Shown here: positions 18,480 through 27,498 of the stretch, one piece after another
Numbering within the stretch: position 1 is the stretch's first letter
Layout: every line of letters starts with the position of its first letter
Source: Thermoplasmata archaeon
GTDB taxonomy: Archaea > Thermoplasmatota > Thermoplasmata > Lutacidiplasmatales > UBA184
Direction of reading: 5' to 3'
Length of the DNA: 34,865 nucleotides
NCBI GenBank assembly: GCA_030037875.1
Contig: JASHPV010000093.1
Location: 1 to 34,865, forward strand
The notes under the pieces: model-generated
Databases searched by the model: none
What the model was told of the DNA's origin: nothing
What the model saw: only the letters and a program-made list of their open reading frames with translations
Program-made: the position numbers and the translations under genes

Positions 18480-18552
18480 GCCACCGTAGCTCAGTTGGCA
18501 GAGCAGCTGATTCGTAATCAGCAGGTCGAGGGTTCAAGTCCCTCCGGTGGCT
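18480..18552 (+). tRNA. tRNA-Thr (anticodon CGT)
   Basis: Cloverleaf resolved by hand: GCCACCG/CGGTGGC acceptor, GCTC/GAGC D-stem, GCTGA-TTCGTAA-TCAGC anticodon arm, GAGGG-TTCAAGT-CCCTC T-arm; discriminator T, CCA not encoded. Confidence 0.95.
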
Positions 18553-18642
18553 GCTTTTCCTCGTTCCTGACTTATCGTCCTTGGAGCTGGAGCGTGCGCC
18601 TCAAGGGACTAGGACCCCAGCGGAAACAACCCCCCGTGTTCG
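18532..18642 (+). repeat. Repeat R0: tRNA-Thr 3' end plus about 90 bp of right arm, homologous to R1
   Basis: Ungapped hand alignment to 21667-21777: about 85/111 identical; homology begins abruptly at GTTC in the T-loop. Confidence 0.85.
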
Positions 18643-18854
18643 AAAGTGTCCGTTGGACGAAGCCTGAGCCATCTAGAAATTAACGTGCGGGTTTCGGGCG
18701 TGACCAAAGTCCTCATCCACCTCCCGGGCGCGCGTTTCAACGGAGACCTCTGGGATCTGACTGATCCGCTCTATTGAGGCACCGTCGCGTAGACGGGGTG
18801 GTTTCTCCGCAACATTTGATTTACGTTCAAGTATGCCTTCAAGCAGCATCGACC

Positions 18855-20636
18855 ATGTCGAAGCCCAGACTGGACCAACGCATCCAGTTCTGCGCAACCC
18901 GAGACGGGACCAGGATCGCGTGTGCCAAGACGGGCGAAGGTTACCCCATCGTTCGGGCCGCGCATTGGCTCACCCACCTAGAGTTCGACTTCGAAAGTCC
19001 GGTGTGGAATTATTGGATTCGGGAACTCTCCCGTTTCAATACGTACATCCGCTACGACGAGCGCGGATTCGGGCTGTCCGATTGGAACCCGACCGAGCTG
19101 AGCTTCGAGAGCTTCGTCAGCGACTTGGAGTCGGTGGTCGACTTCCTCGGCCTCCAGCGATTTGCCCTGCTAGGCGGTTCGCAAGGGGGCGCGGTTGGGA
19201 TAGCATATGCGGCCCGTCACCCAGAGCGCGTGAGCCACCTCATCCTGTACGCCTCCTTTGGAAGAGGCCTCAAAAAGATGGGGGGCCGGGAACAGGATCC
19301 CGGGGCGCTCGCGAGGTGGGAGTCCTTGACGCAAATGATCGAGCTGGGCTGGGGCCGGGAAAATCCCGCCTACCGTCAGCTGTTCACTTCTCTGTTCATG
19401 CCGGATGCGAACGCGGAGCAAGTGCGCTGGTTCAACGAACTCCAAAGGGTATCGTGCCCACCCAAGAACGCCGCCCGACTCCTCGAAATCCTCGCCGATA
19501 TTGACGTGGTCGATCTTCTTTCGAAAGTCTCTGTCCCCACCCTCGTCTTACATGCCCGCCACGACGAGGTGATCCCCTTCGAGGCGGGCCGAGGGTTAGC
19601 CGCTCGGATTCCGGGAGCCCGGTTCGTTCCCTTCGAGGGTCGGAATCACATTCTGCTTGAGTCAGATCCCGGGTGGGCTACATTCCTGCGTGAGATTCGT
19701 GAGTTTCTCGGTGTCGGAGTGGGAGGCGGCACGGAGGTCGTTCCGCTCGTCTCAGGGGAAGCCGGCGCTGAGCTGGCGTCTCAGCGTCTTCTAATTCAGA
19801 TGGAGGCGGTTCCTCTTTCAAGTTTTGCGATCGCCGGAAACTACGTTCGATACTCCTCCAACGTTCGCAGCGCTCTGAAGGACTGGAAACAGCGAGTCCT
19901 TGGGAGCTTGACCTCAGCCCGGCCAGGCATCGAGAACTACCTCATTTGGGGTTCACCGGGCAGCGGGAAGAGCTTCCTGATCCAAGAGGTAGCTCGATCG
20001 CAGGGCAACTCACTCCAGTTCGATGAAATCAACCTGGCGGAATGTGACGAGAGCAGTTTCGTCGCTCGGTTGCGAGAAGCGAGTGCGACAGATTGCCCAT
20101 GCCTTTGCTTGATTGACGAGGTCGACGCGAAGCCGGTCGACTCCTGGCCGTACGAACGGCTGCTCCCGTACCTAACTGGAAGCAACCGTCGGACGCCGCT
20201 GATCAATGTCCTCGCGGGAAGCTCAACGTCCGGCTTAGAAGAAATGAAGCAGCGAATCGCAGCTCGCCCGAAGGGCTCAGACCTCTTGAACCGCATTCCG
20301 GCGGACAACGAAATGGTGATCCCCGGTCTAGAGCCCGGGGATTCGGCTCTCGTCGTCCTGGCTCAATTGAAGCGGGCGGGAGCGAACCTCGGCCATCCCG
20401 TGCGCGAAGTCGAAAAGCTCGCGTTGTACTACATTCTCCTAAATCCGCGTCTTTCGAGTGCTCGGCAACTCGCCGAGTTCGCCCGCCAGTGCGTAGAGCG
20501 TCTTCCCCCGGCAGAGGACCGGGTGAAGTATGACCATCTCTTCCGCGCCGGAGATCCCGAGAACAAGGCGTTTTGGAACCGAGTCGAGCTCCAGCGCCCC
20601 GGCTTATCCGACGCTTTTGTCTCCATCAGTGATTGA
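18855..20636 (+). CDS. Alpha/beta hydrolase fused to a P-loop (AAA-like) ATPase domain
   Basis: N-terminal hydrolase: IRYDERGFGLSDW, LLGGSQGGAVGIAYAARHPERVSHLILYA (GxSxG), LVLHARHDEVIPFEAG, GRNHILLE. C-terminal ATPase: LIWGSPGSGKSFLIQEV (Walker A), CLCLIDEVDAKP (Walker B). ATG at 18855 preferred over the track TTG at 18774. Confidence 0.85.
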   Translation: MSKPRLDQRIQFCATRDGTRIACAKTGEGYPIVRAAHWLTHLEFDFESPVWNYWIRELSRFNTYIRYDERGFGLSDWNPTELSFESFVSDLESVVDFLGLQRFALLGGSQGGAVGIAYAARHPERVSHLILYASFGRGLKKMGGREQDPGALARWESLTQMIELGWGRENPAYRQLFTSLFMPDANAEQVRWFNELQRVSCPPKNAARLLEILADIDVVDLLSKVSVPTLVLHARHDEVIPFEAGRGLAARIPGARFVPFEGRNHILLESDPGWATFLREIREFLGVGVGGGTEVVPLVSGEAGAELASQRLLIQMEAVPLSSFAIAGNYVRYSSNVRSALKDWKQRVLGSLTSARPGIENYLIWGSPGSGKSFLIQEVARSQGNSLQFDEINLAECDESSFVARLREASATDCPCLCLIDEVDAKPVDSWPYERLLPYLTGSNRRTPLINVLAGSSTSGLEEMKQRIAARPKGSDLLNRIPADNEMVIPGLEPGDSALVVLAQLKRAGANLGHPVREVEKLALYYILLNPRLSSARQLAEFARQCVERLPPAEDRVKYDHLFRAGDPENKAFWNRVELQRPGLSDAFVSISD

Positions 20637-20858
20637 GGCCAAGGAACTCCTTCCCGATTCGCCCCTTCGAACGCGGCTCTCGCGTTAGGAACCCCCGCAT
20701 GCGGTCGAAGGGAGGGCCCCATAGAGGATTTCGTGCACACACCCCCGCGGGGGCAAGCCACGGGCTTTGGGTGACTAGAAGCGGGCGGAATCGGTTGATT
20801 GAATGGCCGAGACGGGCAATTCGTCAGTCGGGGAACGCGCTCTCCCCTAGGTGCATAG

Positions 20859-21350
20859 CTAGCGTGCGGGCGTCGAGTAGCTGTACCAACCTTGGAAGCC
20901 CACGGAGGCCGTATAGTTCGCCGAGGGGCCCATGGGAAATCCGGGGGCGCTAATCGACTGACTGATTGAGATCGTAAACGAATGGTTATCCGTCGTCCAA
21001 CCGCACGTTCCGAACGTGGCCGGACCCTCCCCGCACCCGACCAAGGTACCCCACGTTGCACTTGTCCCATTGGCCGCAAGAATCGACACTGCAACTCCCG
21101 GGCCGGTGGTGAGCCACCATCCGAATTCGAGGAGCGCTCCAATAGGTACTCCGGACTCCGTAAAGTTCTGCCAACTCACGATCGTCGACCAATTCACGAC
21201 CTTCGCAGTGATGAGGTGCTGGAATTCCACGACGTGGTCGATGGGAGCGTTGTAAATCCCGAGGAACGCAGCGCTCACGACCGCGAGGGCGACTCCGAGA
21301 GCGGCGACAACCGCAAGAAAGATCCGCAGATCGATCAGGATTCGCTTCAC
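20859..21350 (-). CDS. Hypothetical membrane-anchored/exported protein
   Basis: N-terminal TM (IFLAVVAALGVALAVVSAAFLGIY) followed by a Ser/Thr/Gly-rich extracellular-like domain. Confidence 0.6.
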   Translation of the reverse strand: MKRILIDLRIFLAVVAALGVALAVVSAAFLGIYNAPIDHVVEFQHLITAKVVNWSTIVSWQNFTESGVPIGALLEFGWWLTTGPGVAVSILAANGTSATWGTLVGCGEGPATFGTCGWTTDNHSFTISISQSISAPGFPMGPSANYTASVGFQGWYSYSTPAR

Positions 21351-21619
21351 AGTTCACCCTCCCGCGCTGCCAATTTCAGGCTAAGACCAAAGGTAGCTCT
21401 TCCGTCAAGGCGGCTGAACGCAGACGAATCACCTTCAGCGCTGACTGTCGCGACGGGTGCGGGACACTCCCAAGAGCGCTAGATGTTCCGCGCACCTCTG
21501 CCCGTCGGACAGCACGGCGGGACTAGGAGGTATGAGGGTCGTGAGGGAGGCGTCCGGGGTCCTTTGGCAGTAAACCACCCCTTCCCCACGTCGACTTCGC
21601 GCTGGCAACATCCCCGAGC

Positions 21620-21777
21620 GCAAGTAACGAAGGGAACGCAGACCGGCTCATGGACCCGAACCCTTAGTTCAAGTCCGTCCGGTGGGTGTTATTCCGCGCC
21701 CCTGCCTCATCCTCTCTGGCGCCGGAGGGTGCACCTGACCGGTCTGGGACCCCAGCCGGGACAACCCCCTGTGTTCT
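21620..21777 (+). repeat. Repeat R1: left arm + tRNA-Thr 3'-end core + right arm
   Basis: ggacccgaac-CCTTA-GTTCAAGTCC-gtccggtggg: dyad at 21652-21676. Right arm matches R0 (21667-21777), left arm matches R2 (21620-21666). Confidence 0.85.
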
Positions 21778-21929
21778 AAGGGTCCAACGTACCAAGCCTG
21801 TGCTATTTGGAAGTCAACGCCCGCGATTCGCGCATCACGAATATCCGGTCGGTTGAAGGCGTTCCTGAATGAAAAATTTGAATGAGATTCGACTGCCTCA
21901 GGGCACTGGAAGGTGGGACGGAAGCAGCA

Positions 21930-22502
21930 CTAGCGTCGGTGTCCCCGGGCGTGACGACCACGCCCCGCCCGGAGGACCCTATACTCGGACTTGACCAACC
22001 CTCGGGGAAACGCCTCGGTAGAAACGTGCCTCAGCCGAAGGTCATGAGGCAGCTCCCCGAAGAGAGGTACCCCTTGCCCAATCAGCACCGGGAATCGGTT
22101 GACGATGATCCTATCGATGAGCCCCGCCCTCAGAAAGGCTTGAATCGTCTTGCCGCCGTCGACATAGATGTGCCGAACCCCGCGCTTTTGGAGAAGAGCC
22201 ACCGCTTTCTCCGGTGAGCAGTTCAGCACCTCGCATTTCGCCGTCTTCGGGATTCTCACCCGGCTCGGCTTGTGAGATAGTACGATCACCGGCTTTTCGT
22301 AGGGCCAGCGCCCACCGGTCCGTCGCATCCAGCCGAGCACCCACTTGTAGGTCTTTCGTCCGATGACGCACGCGTCGATCGTCGCGATGAAGTCCTCGTA
22401 GCCGTTCGGATCCCCGCCGACGGTCGGAAGGAAGTCTAAGCTGCCGTTCTTTCGAGCGATGAAACCATCGAGGCTCGTCCCGACGAACACAGAGGCGCGC
22501 AT
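21930..22502 (-). CDS. Dihydrofolate reductase / RibD C-terminal family protein
   Basis: MRASVFVGTSLDGFIARKNGSLDFL...CVIGRKTYKWVLG...YEKPVIVLSHKPSR...VRHIYVDGGKTIQAFLRAGLIDRIIVNRFPVLIGQGVPLFGEL. Confidence 0.9.
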   Translation of the reverse strand: MRASVFVGTSLDGFIARKNGSLDFLPTVGGDPNGYEDFIATIDACVIGRKTYKWVLGWMRRTGGRWPYEKPVIVLSHKPSRVRIPKTAKCEVLNCSPEKAVALLQKRGVRHIYVDGGKTIQAFLRAGLIDRIIVNRFPVLIGQGVPLFGELPHDLRLRHVSTEAFPRGLVKSEYRVLRAGRGRHARGHRR

Positions 22503-22864
22503 GGAACGTGGAGAAGCAGGCGGCTAATGAACCCGTACCACTCGGACGAGGGCAGAATAGCGGCCTCAGACCTCCTTTCGTCGCTCCTTCGAAGGCGTCT
22601 GCGGAGCGGACCAACCTGACATGGATCTTCCGACGGCCGGGGCAGGAAAACACAGTTTCAGGATCCTCGGCCGCATCCGGTAGCCGAACGGGGTTCAGGA
22701 GGCTGCCGAGCGAACTCGCGTTCAAGGTTGTCGAGAACTCCGCACAGAGGACGGCGCTGTCCATATCGCTCGACTCGACGCCCCGTGTAGGCTCGGCGTT
22801 TGCCGGTGGGGGGATATACGCACCCCTTTCGCAGGTTGATTTTGGGCAGGCCACGTATCACAGT

Positions 22865-22934
22865 GCGAGTAAGGGAAGAGAAGCTGGCAGACACGCGGAC
22901 TTGAACCCTTAGTTCAGGTCCCTCCGGTGGCTGG
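22865..22934 (+). repeat. Repeat R2: left arm + tRNA-Thr 3'-end core
   Basis: GGACTTGAAC-CCTTA-GTTCAGGTCC (10-bp stem, one wobble; 22897-22921) followed by CTCCGGTGGCTGG. Left 47 nt align ungapped to R1 (about 31/47). Confidence 0.85.
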
Positions 22935-22975: not shown

Positions 22976-24223
22976 ATGCAGATCTCGAAAGAAACCGAGC
23001 GACGATTTGTGCTCGGCCTGCAGGGGCTTTGGCCAGGGCGCCGCTGGAGCGGCGTTCAGGGAGTACGCGATGCACTCCTTCAGTGTCGCCGTATCCAGGT
23101 AGACCCGCTCGACATCGTCGGACGGAACCACGACCTGGTGCTCGCGAGCCGGGTGGAAGGATATCGACCCGTGGACCTCGAAAGGGTGCTCTACGAGGAG
23201 CGAACAGCGTTCGAGCACGGCGGGAACCTGAACATCTACCCGCGAGAGCGGCTCGCCCTACAGTGGTCTTGGGTCTACCACGAAGGACTCCCGGTTCGAT
23301 GGGAGGAATGGGGACGCGCCCACTCCGCGACGGTCCGTCGCGTTCGAGGGAGGATCGACCGAGGTGGCCCTTCCGGAGCCGGCGACTGGGCCGGCGGCGA
23401 GCCGGTCGAAGAATATCGATCCCGTCGACTCGAAGGGTTGGCGCTCCATTACATGTGGCGCCGCTTCGACGTCATGATCCACCACCGCGAGGGGAACCGG
23501 AAATTCTACGACCGCACCGAGCGCCTGTTCGGACGCCTTCCGGCGCCGATCTCGAGAGAAGAGACCAGGGCCGACCTCGCGCTTGAGACGCTTGGATGGC
23601 TGGGGCTGTCTGGCCATGACGGAACCCAGTTCCTGAGGATTCAGGAGGAGGGCCGCGGCCGCTCCCGTCTCTCGAAACGGCAGCTTAGGGACGGCCTAAC
23701 GGCCTCGGGACGCCTGACGGAAGTCCTCGTGGAGGGCCATCACGAATCTTCGGTGCTCAGGACTGAGGACCTCCCGTTTCTCGAGACCGTCGCCCAAGGA
23801 GAGATACCGAGGTCCTGGCAGACCCACGCCACCGAGCCCGAGACAACGTTCCTAGCTCCGCTTGACGTCACCTCGGCGCACGGTCGTTCCGAAATGCTGT
23901 TCGGCTTCGAGAATCCTTTCGAAGTCTACAAGCCCCCGTCCCAACGTCGATGGGGCTACTACGTCCTGCCAGTGCTGTTAGGGGACCGACTCGTCGGTCG
24001 CATTGAGCCGGTTCGGGACAAAATCGCGCACTCCTTACGAATAAGCCGAGCCTGGTGGGAGAAGGGCGCGAGACCGGGCGAGATCGTCAAGCCATTCTCT
24101 CGCGGTCTCGATCGGTTCGCTCGCTACCTCGAAGCACCCAACGTTATATTGGGCGAGATCGGCTCGCCCCGGTTCCGGGACGCTGTGGCGAGGGAACTTC
24201 GCCGGCTTGCCAATGGATGTTAG
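22976..24223 (+). CDS. Winged-helix DNA-binding domain protein, YcaQ/HTH_42-like
   Basis: GLQGLWPGRRWSGVQGVRDALLQCRRIQVDPLDIVGRNHDLVLASRVEGYRPVDLERVLYEERTAFEHGGNLNIYPRERLALQW...HYMWRRFDVMIHHREGNRKFYDRTERL...VLPVLLGDRLVGRIEPVRD. Confidence 0.8.
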   Translation: MQISKETERRFVLGLQGLWPGRRWSGVQGVRDALLQCRRIQVDPLDIVGRNHDLVLASRVEGYRPVDLERVLYEERTAFEHGGNLNIYPRERLALQWSWVYHEGLPVRWEEWGRAHSATVRRVRGRIDRGGPSGAGDWAGGEPVEEYRSRRLEGLALHYMWRRFDVMIHHREGNRKFYDRTERLFGRLPAPISREETRADLALETLGWLGLSGHDGTQFLRIQEEGRGRSRLSKRQLRDGLTASGRLTEVLVEGHHESSVLRTEDLPFLETVAQGEIPRSWQTHATEPETTFLAPLDVTSAHGRSEMLFGFENPFEVYKPPSQRRWGYYVLPVLLGDRLVGRIEPVRDKIAHSLRISRAWWEKGARPGEIVKPFSRGLDRFARYLEAPNVILGEIGSPRFRDAVARELRRLANGC

Positions 24224-24385
24224 TGCGGTCCTTCCACAGGAGGCCTCCCGCCCCCAAGCGCTCGTGGTCGTTGTGAGTCTCGTGGCCGGAGTGATTCCCT
24301 CCGGATTCGGAACCATTGTATTGGCGGTAGGACTTGCCCGGTTGTCAAACAGCGAACCGCAACCCCTCGGCAGCAGGAGGAATCT

Positions 24386-25324
24386 GTGGAGAACCTTGGG
24401 TCGCCGAACAGAATGGGAGATTCCAACCCGACGAAACTTCCGAGATTTACCCCCCGGACCATCCCTCGACTGCTGAAGATCCGCCCCTACATCCTCAACT
24501 TCTGGGGGTTGGGCCTCCGATATTTGGTCAACGGTCGGAACCGCTCCGGGTACGACGTCAAGGTTGGCGGGGCCCGACCCCAGTCCCTGCACTGTTCAGA
24601 CCGGGCCGAGCTTGCCTTCGTCATCTACAGTGCCTACTTCGGCGTCACGCTCCTGCCCGACTCGGAGGTCGCTCCGCACGTCGAGCATCTTCTGGGTCGG
24701 TTTCGTTACATTCGGGAACGGTTGGAGAGCAAGTTTACGACTGATCAAATTCGGCTGTATTCCACGGGGGGATGGCCTGGATTCAAGGAAGCGGCCCTCT
24801 ATGCCTTGATTCGACGCGTTCGCCCCCTCGAAGTGATCGAAACCGGAGTGGGTCAAGGAATCTCCTCCACCTTCATTCTTGACGCGCTTCACGAGAACGG
24901 GAGAGGGCACCTGACATCCATCGACCTTCCCAACTTCGACCCGTCTGGGTACCGGTACGGGGACGGCACTGTAGACCGTGTGTTTGTACCGACTGAATTG
25001 GGCGCAGGGTGGCTCGTGCCGGAAGTTCTACGAAGCCGTTGGACCTTGCTCATCGGTCCGTCTCAGGACGTTCTCCCAACGCTGTCGATTCGACCCCAGG
25101 TGTTCCTCCACGATTCCATGCACACGTACGAGCACATGAAAATGGAGTTCGAGTGGGCCTGGAGTCGCCTCCCTATGGGGGGCCTCCTGGTTAGCGATGA
25201 CATCTCATGGAACAAGGCGTTCCCTGATTTTCTAGTGGCCCATGCGCCTGAGGCGGTACCTCTGTGCGTGGAAGAAGTCGGGGTGGCCCTCCGCGCAGTC
25301 CCTCCATCCGAGATCTCAGTGTAG
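24386..25324 (+). CDS. Class I SAM-dependent methyltransferase (Methyltransf_24/CmcI-like)
   Basis: RPLEVIETGVGQGISSTFILDALHENGRGHLTSIDLP...LLIGPSQDVLPTL...VFLHDSMHTYEHMKMEFEWAWSRLPMGGLLVSDDI. Confidence 0.75.
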   Translation: MENLGSPNRMGDSNPTKLPRFTPRTIPRLLKIRPYILNFWGLGLRYLVNGRNRSGYDVKVGGARPQSLHCSDRAELAFVIYSAYFGVTLLPDSEVAPHVEHLLGRFRYIRERLESKFTTDQIRLYSTGGWPGFKEAALYALIRRVRPLEVIETGVGQGISSTFILDALHENGRGHLTSIDLPNFDPSGYRYGDGTVDRVFVPTELGAGWLVPEVLRSRWTLLIGPSQDVLPTLSIRPQVFLHDSMHTYEHMKMEFEWAWSRLPMGGLLVSDDISWNKAFPDFLVAHAPEAVPLCVEEVGVALRAVPPSEISV

Positions 25325-25475: not shown

Positions 25476-25515
25476 GGGAGCTCGAACTCTGGGTTCGACT
25501 CTCCCCGGTGGTTGG
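25476..25515 (+). repeat. Repeat R3: degenerate tRNA 3'-end/dyad copy
   Basis: GGGAGCTCGAAC-TCTGG-GTTCGACTCTCCC with a bulge, then CGGTGGTTGG. Confidence 0.7.
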
Positions 25516-25603: not shown

Positions 25604-25960
25604 ATGAGTACGAACAAGACGATCGTCGAGAGATACATGGCAAGCACGGACCGCACGAAGGTCGGCCCCCTACTGGCCGACGATGTGGAGTGGATCGAGT
25701 GGGGCAATGGAGTCCCCCCAACCGGAGTGCGAACGCGAGGAAAGGCCGCGTTCATTCAGAATTTTGGGAACGATGAACTTCGGTCGGAGGTCAGCCGGAT
25801 GACCGAGCAAGGCAACGTGGTCGTTGTGGAGGGCACGGCTCACGTCCACAAGAAGGACGGCACCCACCTGTCCGTTCGGTTTTGCGACATCTTCGAGCTC
25901 GAGAGCGGCAAAGTGAAGCGGCTGAACTCGTTCGGGGCGCTGATCAAGGACTCCGCCTAA
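25604..25960 (+). CDS. SnoaL-like/NTF2-fold protein
   Basis: MSTNKTIVERYMASTDRTKVGPLLADDVEWIEWGNGVPPTGVRTRGKAAFIQNF...VVVEGTAHVHKKDGTHLSVRFCDIFELESGKVKRLNSF. Confidence 0.82.
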   Translation: MSTNKTIVERYMASTDRTKVGPLLADDVEWIEWGNGVPPTGVRTRGKAAFIQNFGNDELRSEVSRMTEQGNVVVVEGTAHVHKKDGTHLSVRFCDIFELESGKVKRLNSFGALIKDSA

Positions 25961-26063: not shown

Positions 26064-26597
26064 CTATCTTGGAGGATTATCCTTGATCCGACCGACATCG
26101 TGCGCCCATCGGATCCAGTTGTAGATTGGCGCTTCGACGTCGATCTGCCAGAGGAGGGCATTCAGCTCGCCCAGGTGCTGGAGCTCCTCTTCGACCAAAT
26201 GCCATAGAACCTCACGGACCGGGATGTCGCAATCATGGTCCGACCCGGGGCCTTTCGGTCTGGCAATCGTACGATCTAAGTCGCTCTCCCGCAAGGCGGC
26301 CATGAACCGCCCGATGTGTGTCTGGAGGTACGTCTCGAACTCCTTCAGCTGCGCGACTGTAGGGGGATCACCGATTTCCGGCTCGGGAGGCGGGAATGCG
26401 TCCGGCGAGCAGTTCTTTATCCAGAAGTATAGCGCCCCCGAAGAATGCGCTAGGATGTCGACAAGCGACGGGTAGGACGCACCCCGGTCACGAGAGAGCT
26501 CCTGGGGTGGAAGCTTTGCGAATGTCTCCAGGTAGCCGCCGCGCGAGGCGGCAAGGTAGTCGAACCACTCCCGCAGCGTATCCAGCTCGGAGACCAT
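26064..26597 (-). CDS. DinB/DfsB-like superfamily protein
   Basis: REWFDYLAASRGGYLETFAKLPPQELSRDRGASYPSLVDILAHSSGALYFWIKN...REVLWHLVEEELQHLGELNALLWQ: four-helix, His-rich DinB pattern. Confidence 0.78.
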   Translation of the reverse strand: MVSELDTLREWFDYLAASRGGYLETFAKLPPQELSRDRGASYPSLVDILAHSSGALYFWIKNCSPDAFPPPEPEIGDPPTVAQLKEFETYLQTHIGRFMAALRESDLDRTIARPKGPGSDHDCDIPVREVLWHLVEEELQHLGELNALLWQIDVEAPIYNWIRWAHDVGRIKDNPPR

Positions 26598-26684: not shown

Positions 26685-26723
26685 GGGGAGTTGAACGGAG
26701 CGTTTACTCTCCTCCGGTGGCGG
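26685..26723 (+). repeat. Repeat R4: degenerate tRNA 3'-end/dyad copy
   Basis: GGGGAGTTGAAC-GGAGC-GTTTACTCTCC with a bulge like R3, then TCCGGTGGCGG. Confidence 0.68.
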
Positions 26724-26982: not shown

Positions 26983-27411
26983 ATGAAGCCTCGTGTGACC
27001 GTGCTTACGCTCGGAGTGGACGATCTGGACCGCGCGCTTCGATTTTACCGGGAGGGCCTAGGGCTGGATACGGAAGGAATAGTTGGCGCTGAACTCGAGC
27101 ACGGAGCGGTCGTGTTTTTTTCTTTGCAAGGAAATCTAATGCTCGCGCTCTATCCCCGGAAGGAAATCGCGTGGGATGCGAGGGTCGAGGCGCAGCCGAG
27201 GAGTTCGACGGAGTTCACCATCGGTCACAATGTCAACAGCAAAGAGGAAGTGAACGACGTGATGACCCAAGCTCGGGCGGCCGGCGCACAAATCGCGAAA
27301 CCCGCCGGGCCGACATTCTGGGGAGGCTACGCGGGTTATTTTCTCGACCCCGACGGACACCTGTGGGAAATCGCCTGGAACCCCGAACTCCGGGTCGAAG
27401 AGGGCCCGTAG
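26983..27411 (+). CDS. VOC (glyoxalase/bleomycin-resistance) family protein
   Basis: MKPRVTVLTLGVDDLDRALRFYREGLGLDTEGI...AGAQIAKPAGPTFWGGYAGYFLDPDGHLWEIAWNP. Confidence 0.92.
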   Translation: MKPRVTVLTLGVDDLDRALRFYREGLGLDTEGIVGAELEHGAVVFFSLQGNLMLALYPRKEIAWDARVEAQPRSSTEFTIGHNVNSKEEVNDVMTQARAAGAQIAKPAGPTFWGGYAGYFLDPDGHLWEIAWNPELRVEEGP

Positions 27412-27458
27412 GTCGGGACTCACAGGTCACCCCCGAGCGTCGAAGGTGGCTCTTCGCC

Positions 27459-27498
27459 GGGAGTTTGAACTGTTGCTTCGAAGCCCTCCGGTGATCGG
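27459..27498 (+). repeat. Repeat R5: most degenerate tRNA 3'-end/dyad copy
   Basis: GGGAGTTTGAAC-TGTTG-CTTCGAAGCCCTCCGGTGATCGG; same order of left arm, 5-nt spacer and CTCCGGTG tail. Confidence 0.58.

What the first reader, a model, noticed from the sequence alone, without database searches (positions are those of the whole stretch)
18532..21777. R0 and R1 share a 111-bp right arm beginning exactly in the tRNA T-loop
Bases 18532-18642 and 21667-21777 align with no gaps at about 85/111 identical (hand count). Immediately upstream they differ (tRNA T-stem GAGG versus CTTA). Homology that switches on at a fixed point in the T-loop and continues about 90 bp beyond the tRNA end is what a site-specific crossover followed by a shared element arm (P') predicts. 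Simple tRNA duplication would not start there. The ungapped, substitution-only divergence over noncoding DNA suggests the arm was once conserved for function, such as recombinase arm sites or an ncRNA.
Basis: seen in the sequence. Interest (0 to 1): 0.72.

Follow-up and report, generated by a model that had tools for sequence, protein, structure and literature searches.

The report
Gene-cassette arrays anchored on tRNA genes
In a family of uncultivated archaea, small swappable genes pile up one behind another at the end of ordinary tRNA genes, each bounded by a short DNA tag that imitates that tRNA, which looks like an integron-style gene-collecting system for which I found no earlier description.

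Summary
It is one corner of something larger. tRNA-Thr(CGT) at 18480-18552 heads an array of gene cassettes. Each cassette ends in a 37-bp site: an inverted copy of the tRNA's T-arm followed by the tRNA's own 3' end (R1, R2, R3 in the window; R4, R5 decayed). I found 48 such sites in 15 genomes of one Thermoplasmata family, all on the tRNA's strand, at four tRNA genes (Thr-CGT, Thr-GGT, Thr-TGT, Cys-GCA); the inverted arm tends to match the tRNA used. Forty complete cassettes (median 1.8 kb) carry one or a few accessory genes and no recombinase. Homologous cassettes recur in different genomes with other neighbours and in swapped order, and relatives show the state before insertion. The shared P' arm carries a second dyad motif at a fixed distance. 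A tyrosine recombinase gene sits just 5' of tRNA-Thr in several relatives; it is my candidate enzyme, unproven. It works like an integron but fails integron membership tests. No published description was found in the open-access library searched.

The parts
18480..18552 (+). tRNA-Thr(CGT), the insertion point that heads the array (R0)
   Evidence: ARAGORN and Rfam; NMNAT-tRNA-Thr linkage conserved in the family
18553..18707 (+). P' leader of cassette 1, with accessory dyad at 18620-18654 (GCGGAAACAACCCCCCGTGTTCGAAAGTGTCCGTT)
   Evidence: Homologous to 21688-21841; motif at the same offset in more than 20 cassette starts
18774..20636 (+). Cargo of cassette 1: alpha/beta hydrolase fused to an AAA ATPase, 620 aa
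   Evidence: Pfam
21576..21650 (+). P (left) arm of cassette 1, shared with R2 and with sites in G040, G072, G141
   Evidence: blastn
21651..21687 (+). Site R1: inverted T-arm plus tRNA-Thr 3' end
   Evidence: Weight matrix 44.7 bits, control maximum 5.7; profile model
21688..21841 (+). P' leader of cassette 2, dyad at 21755-21788
21930..22502 (-). Cargo of cassette 2: RibD C-terminal domain (dihydrofolate reductase-like) protein
   Evidence: Pfam
22821..22895 (+). P (left) arm of cassette 2
   Evidence: blastn to R1 left arm
22896..22932 (+). Site R2, near-consensus
   Evidence: 59.3 bits, E = 2.5e-15
22976..24223 (+). Cargo: AlkZ-like DNA glycosylase; the same cassette starts at a site in G002 (85% DNA identity)
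   Evidence: Pfam, blastn
24386..25324 (+). Cargo: methyltransferase (PF13578); probably once a separate cassette, its left site lost
   Evidence: Pfam; homology with G002 stops at 24235
25477..25513 (+). Site R3, partly decayed
   Evidence: 15.3 bits; 91 bp before the SnoaL gene that follows the tRNA directly in G004 and G065
25604..25960 (+). Cargo: SnoaL-like protein
   Evidence: Pfam
26064..26597 (-). Cargo: DinB/mycothiol-S-transferase-like protein, same pair with SnoaL in G065
   Evidence: Pfam
26685..26722 (+). Site R4, strongly decayed (tentative)
   Evidence: 18/26 match to tRNA 3' end; below matrix threshold
26983..27411 (+). Cargo: glyoxalase; homologous cassette in G002 ends at a site 22 bp beyond the shared stretch
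   Evidence: Pfam, blastn
27455..27498 (+). Site R5, strongly decayed (tentative)
   Evidence: Read by eye; lies where G002 has a site behind the homologous glyoxalase cassette

Best explanation
An integron-like gene-cassette array that uses tRNA genes as its insertion point. A cassette is thought to move as a small circle with one recombination site: a left (P) arm holding an inverted copy of the target tRNA's T-arm, a short stretch shared with the tRNA where strands are exchanged (probably TCCCTCC), the tRNA 3' end, and a P' leader with a second dyad about 66 bp further on. A tyrosine recombinase exchanges the circle with the 3' part of the tRNA gene. The cassette brings a new 3' end so the tRNA stays whole; the old 3' end is pushed to the cassette's far side and becomes the internal site. 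Repetition gives an array with the newest cassette next to the tRNA. Shown by sequence: sites, both arms, fixed orientation, association with the particular tRNA, cassette swapping, the state before insertion. Inferred: the circle, the exact crossover, newest-first growth, and the enzyme (best candidate: the integrase encoded just 5' of tRNA-Thr in several relatives, acting in trans).
For: Chain R0 = tRNA+P', R1 = P+P', R2 = P+other. 28 matrix-scored sites at 15-61 bits against a control maximum of 5.7, all on the tRNA strand; 48 sites in 24 loci, no locus of mixed strand. Cassettes A and B in swapped order in G002 and G072 (82%, 94%), C1 and others with different neighbours. Uninserted relatives G004 and G065. 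Four tRNA genes used; left arm associated with the linked tRNA, CGT versus GGT, Fisher p = 5e-5. P' dyad at a fixed 61-70 bp offset in 23 of 70 ends. Integrase 13-45 bp 5' of tRNA-Thr(TGT) in G002, G058, G025, G064, decayed copies 5' of tRNA-Thr(CGT) in G009, G033, G024, G069; in G002 that tRNA is followed by the P' arm and by a cassette ending in a site.
Against: No experiment; no excised circle seen. Only XerA matched PF00589 in G040, G056 and G072, which have arrays, so the enzyme may be another one or be missing from these draft genomes. G058 has an intact integrase beside tRNA-Thr(TGT) but no clear site behind that tRNA. Site scores fall away from the tRNA only weakly without the window (p = 0.09). 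Two genomes (G072 versus G141) differ in the middle of an array, so insertion or deletion is not confined to the tRNA end. Some sites have the wrong arm for their tRNA (L085), and related sites are not independent.
Confidence: 0.8

Rival explanations
1. Ordinary tRNA-targeting integrative elements: the cassettes are satellites or remnants of autonomous elements (virus or plasmid) aimed at tRNA-Thr, mobilised in trans by an integrase that comes and goes; there is no resident platform.
For: G037 and G041 carry a different integrase about 480 bp 3' of tRNA-Thr(CGT), the usual layout of such an element. Array genomes without a matching integrase exist. tRNA-targeted elements are common in archaea (PMC6563490).
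Against: Cassettes as short as 0.7 kb with one or a few metabolic genes and no replication or structural genes found; site pattern absent from viral contigs; integrase recurrently placed 5' of tRNA-Thr.
Confidence: 0.3
2. XerA-driven modules: the universal Xer recombinase of these archaea moves the cassettes, as in Xer/dif modules.
For: A strong PF00589 match of XerA size is found in 22 of 25 genomes tested and is the only PF00589 match in G040, G056 and G072. The core has two 10-11 bp inverted arms around a 5-7 bp centre.
Against: Sites imitate tRNA T-arms and differ with the tRNA, not expected of one dif; all sites face one way.
Confidence: 0.15
3. Single-strand hairpin insertion of the IS200/IS605 type, or a transposase that inserts behind a tRNA-like end.
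For: The site can fold into an 11-bp hairpin, -9.2 kcal/mol against -4.4 for shuffles, z = -2.6.
Against: Covariation of the two halves is slight (72.5% versus 69.8% paired, sd 1.0); no such transposase was found in the cassettes annotated, though it was not searched for genome-wide; a second dyad in P' is typical of tyrosine recombinase arm sites.
Confidence: 0.07
4. Repeated partial duplication of the tRNA end with homologous recombination; no dedicated system.
For: Sites contain the tRNA 3' end.
Against: Inverted T-arm, two conserved arms, one orientation in all loci, exact site-to-site cassette boundaries in different contexts.
Confidence: 0.02

Closest known systems
Integrons, including archaeal integrons (Ghaly et al. 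2022, PMC9668308)
   Same: Arrays of mostly single-gene, promoterless-looking accessory cassettes in head-to-tail order, each ending in an imperfect palindromic site; an insertion point at one end; a tyrosine recombinase gene next to that point in some genomes.
   Different: Insertion point is a tRNA gene, not attI; sites are 37 bp and built from tRNA sequence, not attC; the candidate recombinase is not IntI; several tRNA genes are used; many cassettes have long conserved arms. The paper mentions neither tRNA nor Thermoplasmata.
tRNA-targeted integrative elements of archaea and bacteria (for example thaumarchaeal elements, PMC6563490)
   Same: Insertion at the 3' part of a tRNA, tRNA restored by the element, displaced tRNA end at the far side, tandem stacking.
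   Different: The cassettes examined carry no integrase; one to a few genes; dozens of sites with an inverted T-arm associated with the target tRNA; cassettes shuffle between genomes.
Tycheposons and tRNA-repeat genomic islands (described for Methylophilaceae in PMC10872708)
   Same: Flexible islands behind tRNA genes, with recurring tRNA-end repeats and a tyrosine recombinase.
   Different: Given there as 4-200 kb elements; no inverted T-arm site or array of single-gene cassettes is reported in the passages read.
Xer/dif modules of bacterial plasmids (from general knowledge)
   Same: Genes flanked by short recombinase dyads and moved by a resident Xer enzyme.
   Different: dif modules alternate in orientation and are not tied to tRNA genes.

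Membership tests
Integron | Integron integrase IntI | tested here: not met
   The candidate recombinase scores 32 bits against the NCBIfam integron-integrase cut-off of 265; other integrases in array genomes not tested one by one
Integron | attC sites (RYYYAAC...GTTRRRY, roughly 55-140 bp) | tested here: not met
   Sites are 37 bp, consensus ACTTGAAC...GTTCAGGT, which breaks both boxes
Integron | Head-to-tail array of mobile cassettes | tested here: met
   One orientation, swapped order, shared cassettes
Integron | Recombinase gene beside the insertion point | tested here: inconclusive
   Present at tRNA-Thr in 8 genomes, four of them decayed; not in the window; with an array only in G002
tRNA-targeted integrative element | Element end restores the tRNA and displaces the old 3' end | tested here: met
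   tRNA whole at R0, displaced ends at R1-R3, uninserted relatives
tRNA-targeted integrative element | Element encodes its own integrase | tested here: not met
   No recombinase among cassette proteins scanned; short or unmatched frames not all examined
Xer/dif module | Sites match the host's dif | not tested
   The chromosomal dif of these archaea was not located

The most novel reading that the evidence does not exclude
A gene-capture platform independent of integrons: a resident archaeal tyrosine recombinase encoded beside tRNA-Thr inserts interchangeable gene cassettes behind several tRNA genes, and each cassette's site carries an inverted copy of the T-arm of the tRNA it targets, so that target choice is written into the site.
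Probability: 0.5. Interest if true: 0.9.

Novelty: new variant of a known kind. Interest (0 to 1): 0.82.

Why it matters
If right, archaea have their own integron-like way to collect and reshuffle accessory genes, with housekeeping tRNA genes as the docking site. It would help explain fast turnover of small enzyme genes in uncultivated Thermoplasmata, gives a searchable tag for cataloguing cassettes in metagenomes, allows a direct test of how a recombinase tells tRNA genes apart, and raises the question whether the integron design evolved more than once.

Tried and rejected
Non-coding RNA reading of the arm: no Rfam match beyond the tRNA. Crossover in the T-loop: rejected because 23 of 28 sites carry G where the tRNAs have A58. 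Simple tRNA duplication: rejected (inverted arm, cassette swapping). Viral source of cassettes: the exact site pattern is absent from viral contigs. Wider spread: in 350 genomes of the class the 19 with a match are all in this family. Single-strand folding: hairpin is possible but covariation is slight, so not claimed. Integrase and site presence across genomes did not correlate clearly; draft genomes break at the arrays. A first integrase hypothesis, the integrase 3' of tRNA-Thr in G037 and G041, was set aside because those elements have no cassette site at their far end within 19 kb.

Full report
Observation. The two stretches match 85/111 without gaps, and the homology runs to 176 bp (73%, E about 1e-23), starting at 18532 with no relation to the left. 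The tRNA is tRNA-Thr(CGT), 18480-18552. R1 shares a different, left-hand arm with a third site, R2. So R0 is tRNA plus P', R1 is P plus P', and R2 is P plus another right side: the pattern expected of insertions stacked behind a tRNA.

Related arrays. The NMN adenylyltransferase gene and tRNA-Thr(CGT) are neighbours in the same orientation through the family. A pattern for the site with up to 3 mismatches hits 16 times in 7 of 103 family genomes and never when reversed. A weight matrix found 28 sites in the first loci, at 15-61 bits against a control maximum of 5.7, all on the tRNA's strand. A profile search of 103 genomes and a second round of loci gave 48 sites in 24 loci of 15 genomes, with no locus of mixed orientation. 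The named records are Thermoplasmata MAGs labelled JOPF, from tropical peat under an oil palm plantation (PMC10250450). In 350 genomes of the class, only genomes of this family matched.

Mobility. Cassettes between two sites recur in other genomes with other neighbours. In G002 cassette A precedes B; in G072 B (94% identity) precedes A (82%). Cassette C1 is followed by different cassettes in G072 and G141, and it lies second behind the tRNA, after three different first cassettes, in G072, G141 and G040. In G004 and G065 the SnoaL gene is the first gene behind the tRNA (89 and 93 bp); in the window it lies 91 bp behind R3, so about 6.95 kb of cassettes separate it from the tRNA. Cargo includes hydrolases, a GNAT acetyltransferase, glyoxalases, short-chain dehydrogenases, methyltransferases, an AlkZ-like glycosylase, a RibD_C protein, a beta-lactamase-fold protein, a peroxidase and cyclase-TPR proteins. 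Complete cassettes number 40, 0.68-5.8 kb, median 1.8 kb.

Site anatomy. The consensus is GGGACTTGAACCCTTAGTTCAGGTCCCTCCRGTGGCT. Its left 13 bases are the exact reverse complement of the T-arm GGGTTCAAGTCCC; its right end is the tRNA 3' end. Arrays were found at tRNA-Thr CGT, GGT and TGT and at tRNA-Cys(GCA). Where the tRNA is on the same contig, the left arm follows it: at CGT genes 17 unique CGT calls and no GGT call; at GGT genes 6 GGT and 1 CGT; at Cys one unique Cys call; at TGT two ties that include TGT (Fisher p = 5e-5 for CGT versus GGT, with the caution that sites share descent). Many cassettes begin with a conserved leader carrying a second dyad, GAACA...TGTTCGAAARGGTCCGT, 61-70 bp behind the tRNA end. 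Of 70 tRNA or site ends, 23 reach a score reached by about 1% of control segments, although the consensus was drawn from some of them.

Crossover. In 23 of 28 sites a G stands where the tRNAs have A58, and the A59 of the G141 tRNA is absent from its array, so this part belongs to the cassette. A site in a GGT array (L085) joins a CGT-type left arm to a GGT-type end. The exchange is therefore placed in the shared TCCCTCC. This rests on few bases; one variant shared by the ends of the two C1 copies would move it slightly right.

Enzyme. No recombinase was found among the cassette proteins. In G002, G058, G025 and G064 a tyrosine recombinase gene ends 13-45 bp 5' of tRNA-Thr(TGT) on the same strand, and decayed relatives stand 5' of tRNA-Thr(CGT) in G009, G033, G024 and G069. 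In G002 this tRNA is followed by the P' arm and by a cassette that ends in a site. Related integrases elsewhere in the family form a separate, well-supported clade (100/99). The intact 360-aa protein of G058 belongs to PF00589 and is neither IntI nor XerA by curated cut-offs. Against it, three array genomes have XerA as their only PF00589 match, so XerA, or an enzyme supplied by another element, stays possible.

Place among known systems. It behaves like an integron but has neither IntI nor attC; it inserts like a tRNA-targeted element but the cassettes lack an integrase. The paper on archaeal integrons does not mention tRNA or Thermoplasmata, and full-text searches found no description of such arrays; subscription journals and preprints were not covered. 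I rate it a new variant of a known kind, with a real chance that it is an independent gene-capture platform.

Noticed in passing
L086, L196 (CGT), L085, L202 (GGT), L126, L212 (TGT): first cassette behind the tRNA: A roughly 640-aa protein with an adenylate/guanylate cyclase domain and TPR repeats recurs as the tRNA-adjacent cassette at three different tRNA genes; it may be a signature gene of the system.
   Followed up: partly
L130 (G037) and L131 (G041), about 480 bp 3' of tRNA-Thr(CGT): A different integrase stands 3' of tRNA-Thr(CGT) with a shared arm TTGGTCCAAGGGTTC..., apparently another element using the same tRNA.
   Followed up: partly
window 20859-21350 (- strand): Second open frame in cassette 1 with no Pfam match; the N-terminal stretch looks hydrophobic.
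   Followed up: no
L157 (G125), downstream of its integrase: The leader ATTCTCTGACGT that precedes tRNA-Thr elsewhere follows the integrase, but a tRNA-Ile on the other strand stands there instead; possibly a rearranged platform.
   Followed up: no
window 24236-24385: Homology with the AlkZ cassette of G002 stops at 24235 and a second gene follows, so a site was probably lost here and two cassettes fused.
   Followed up: no
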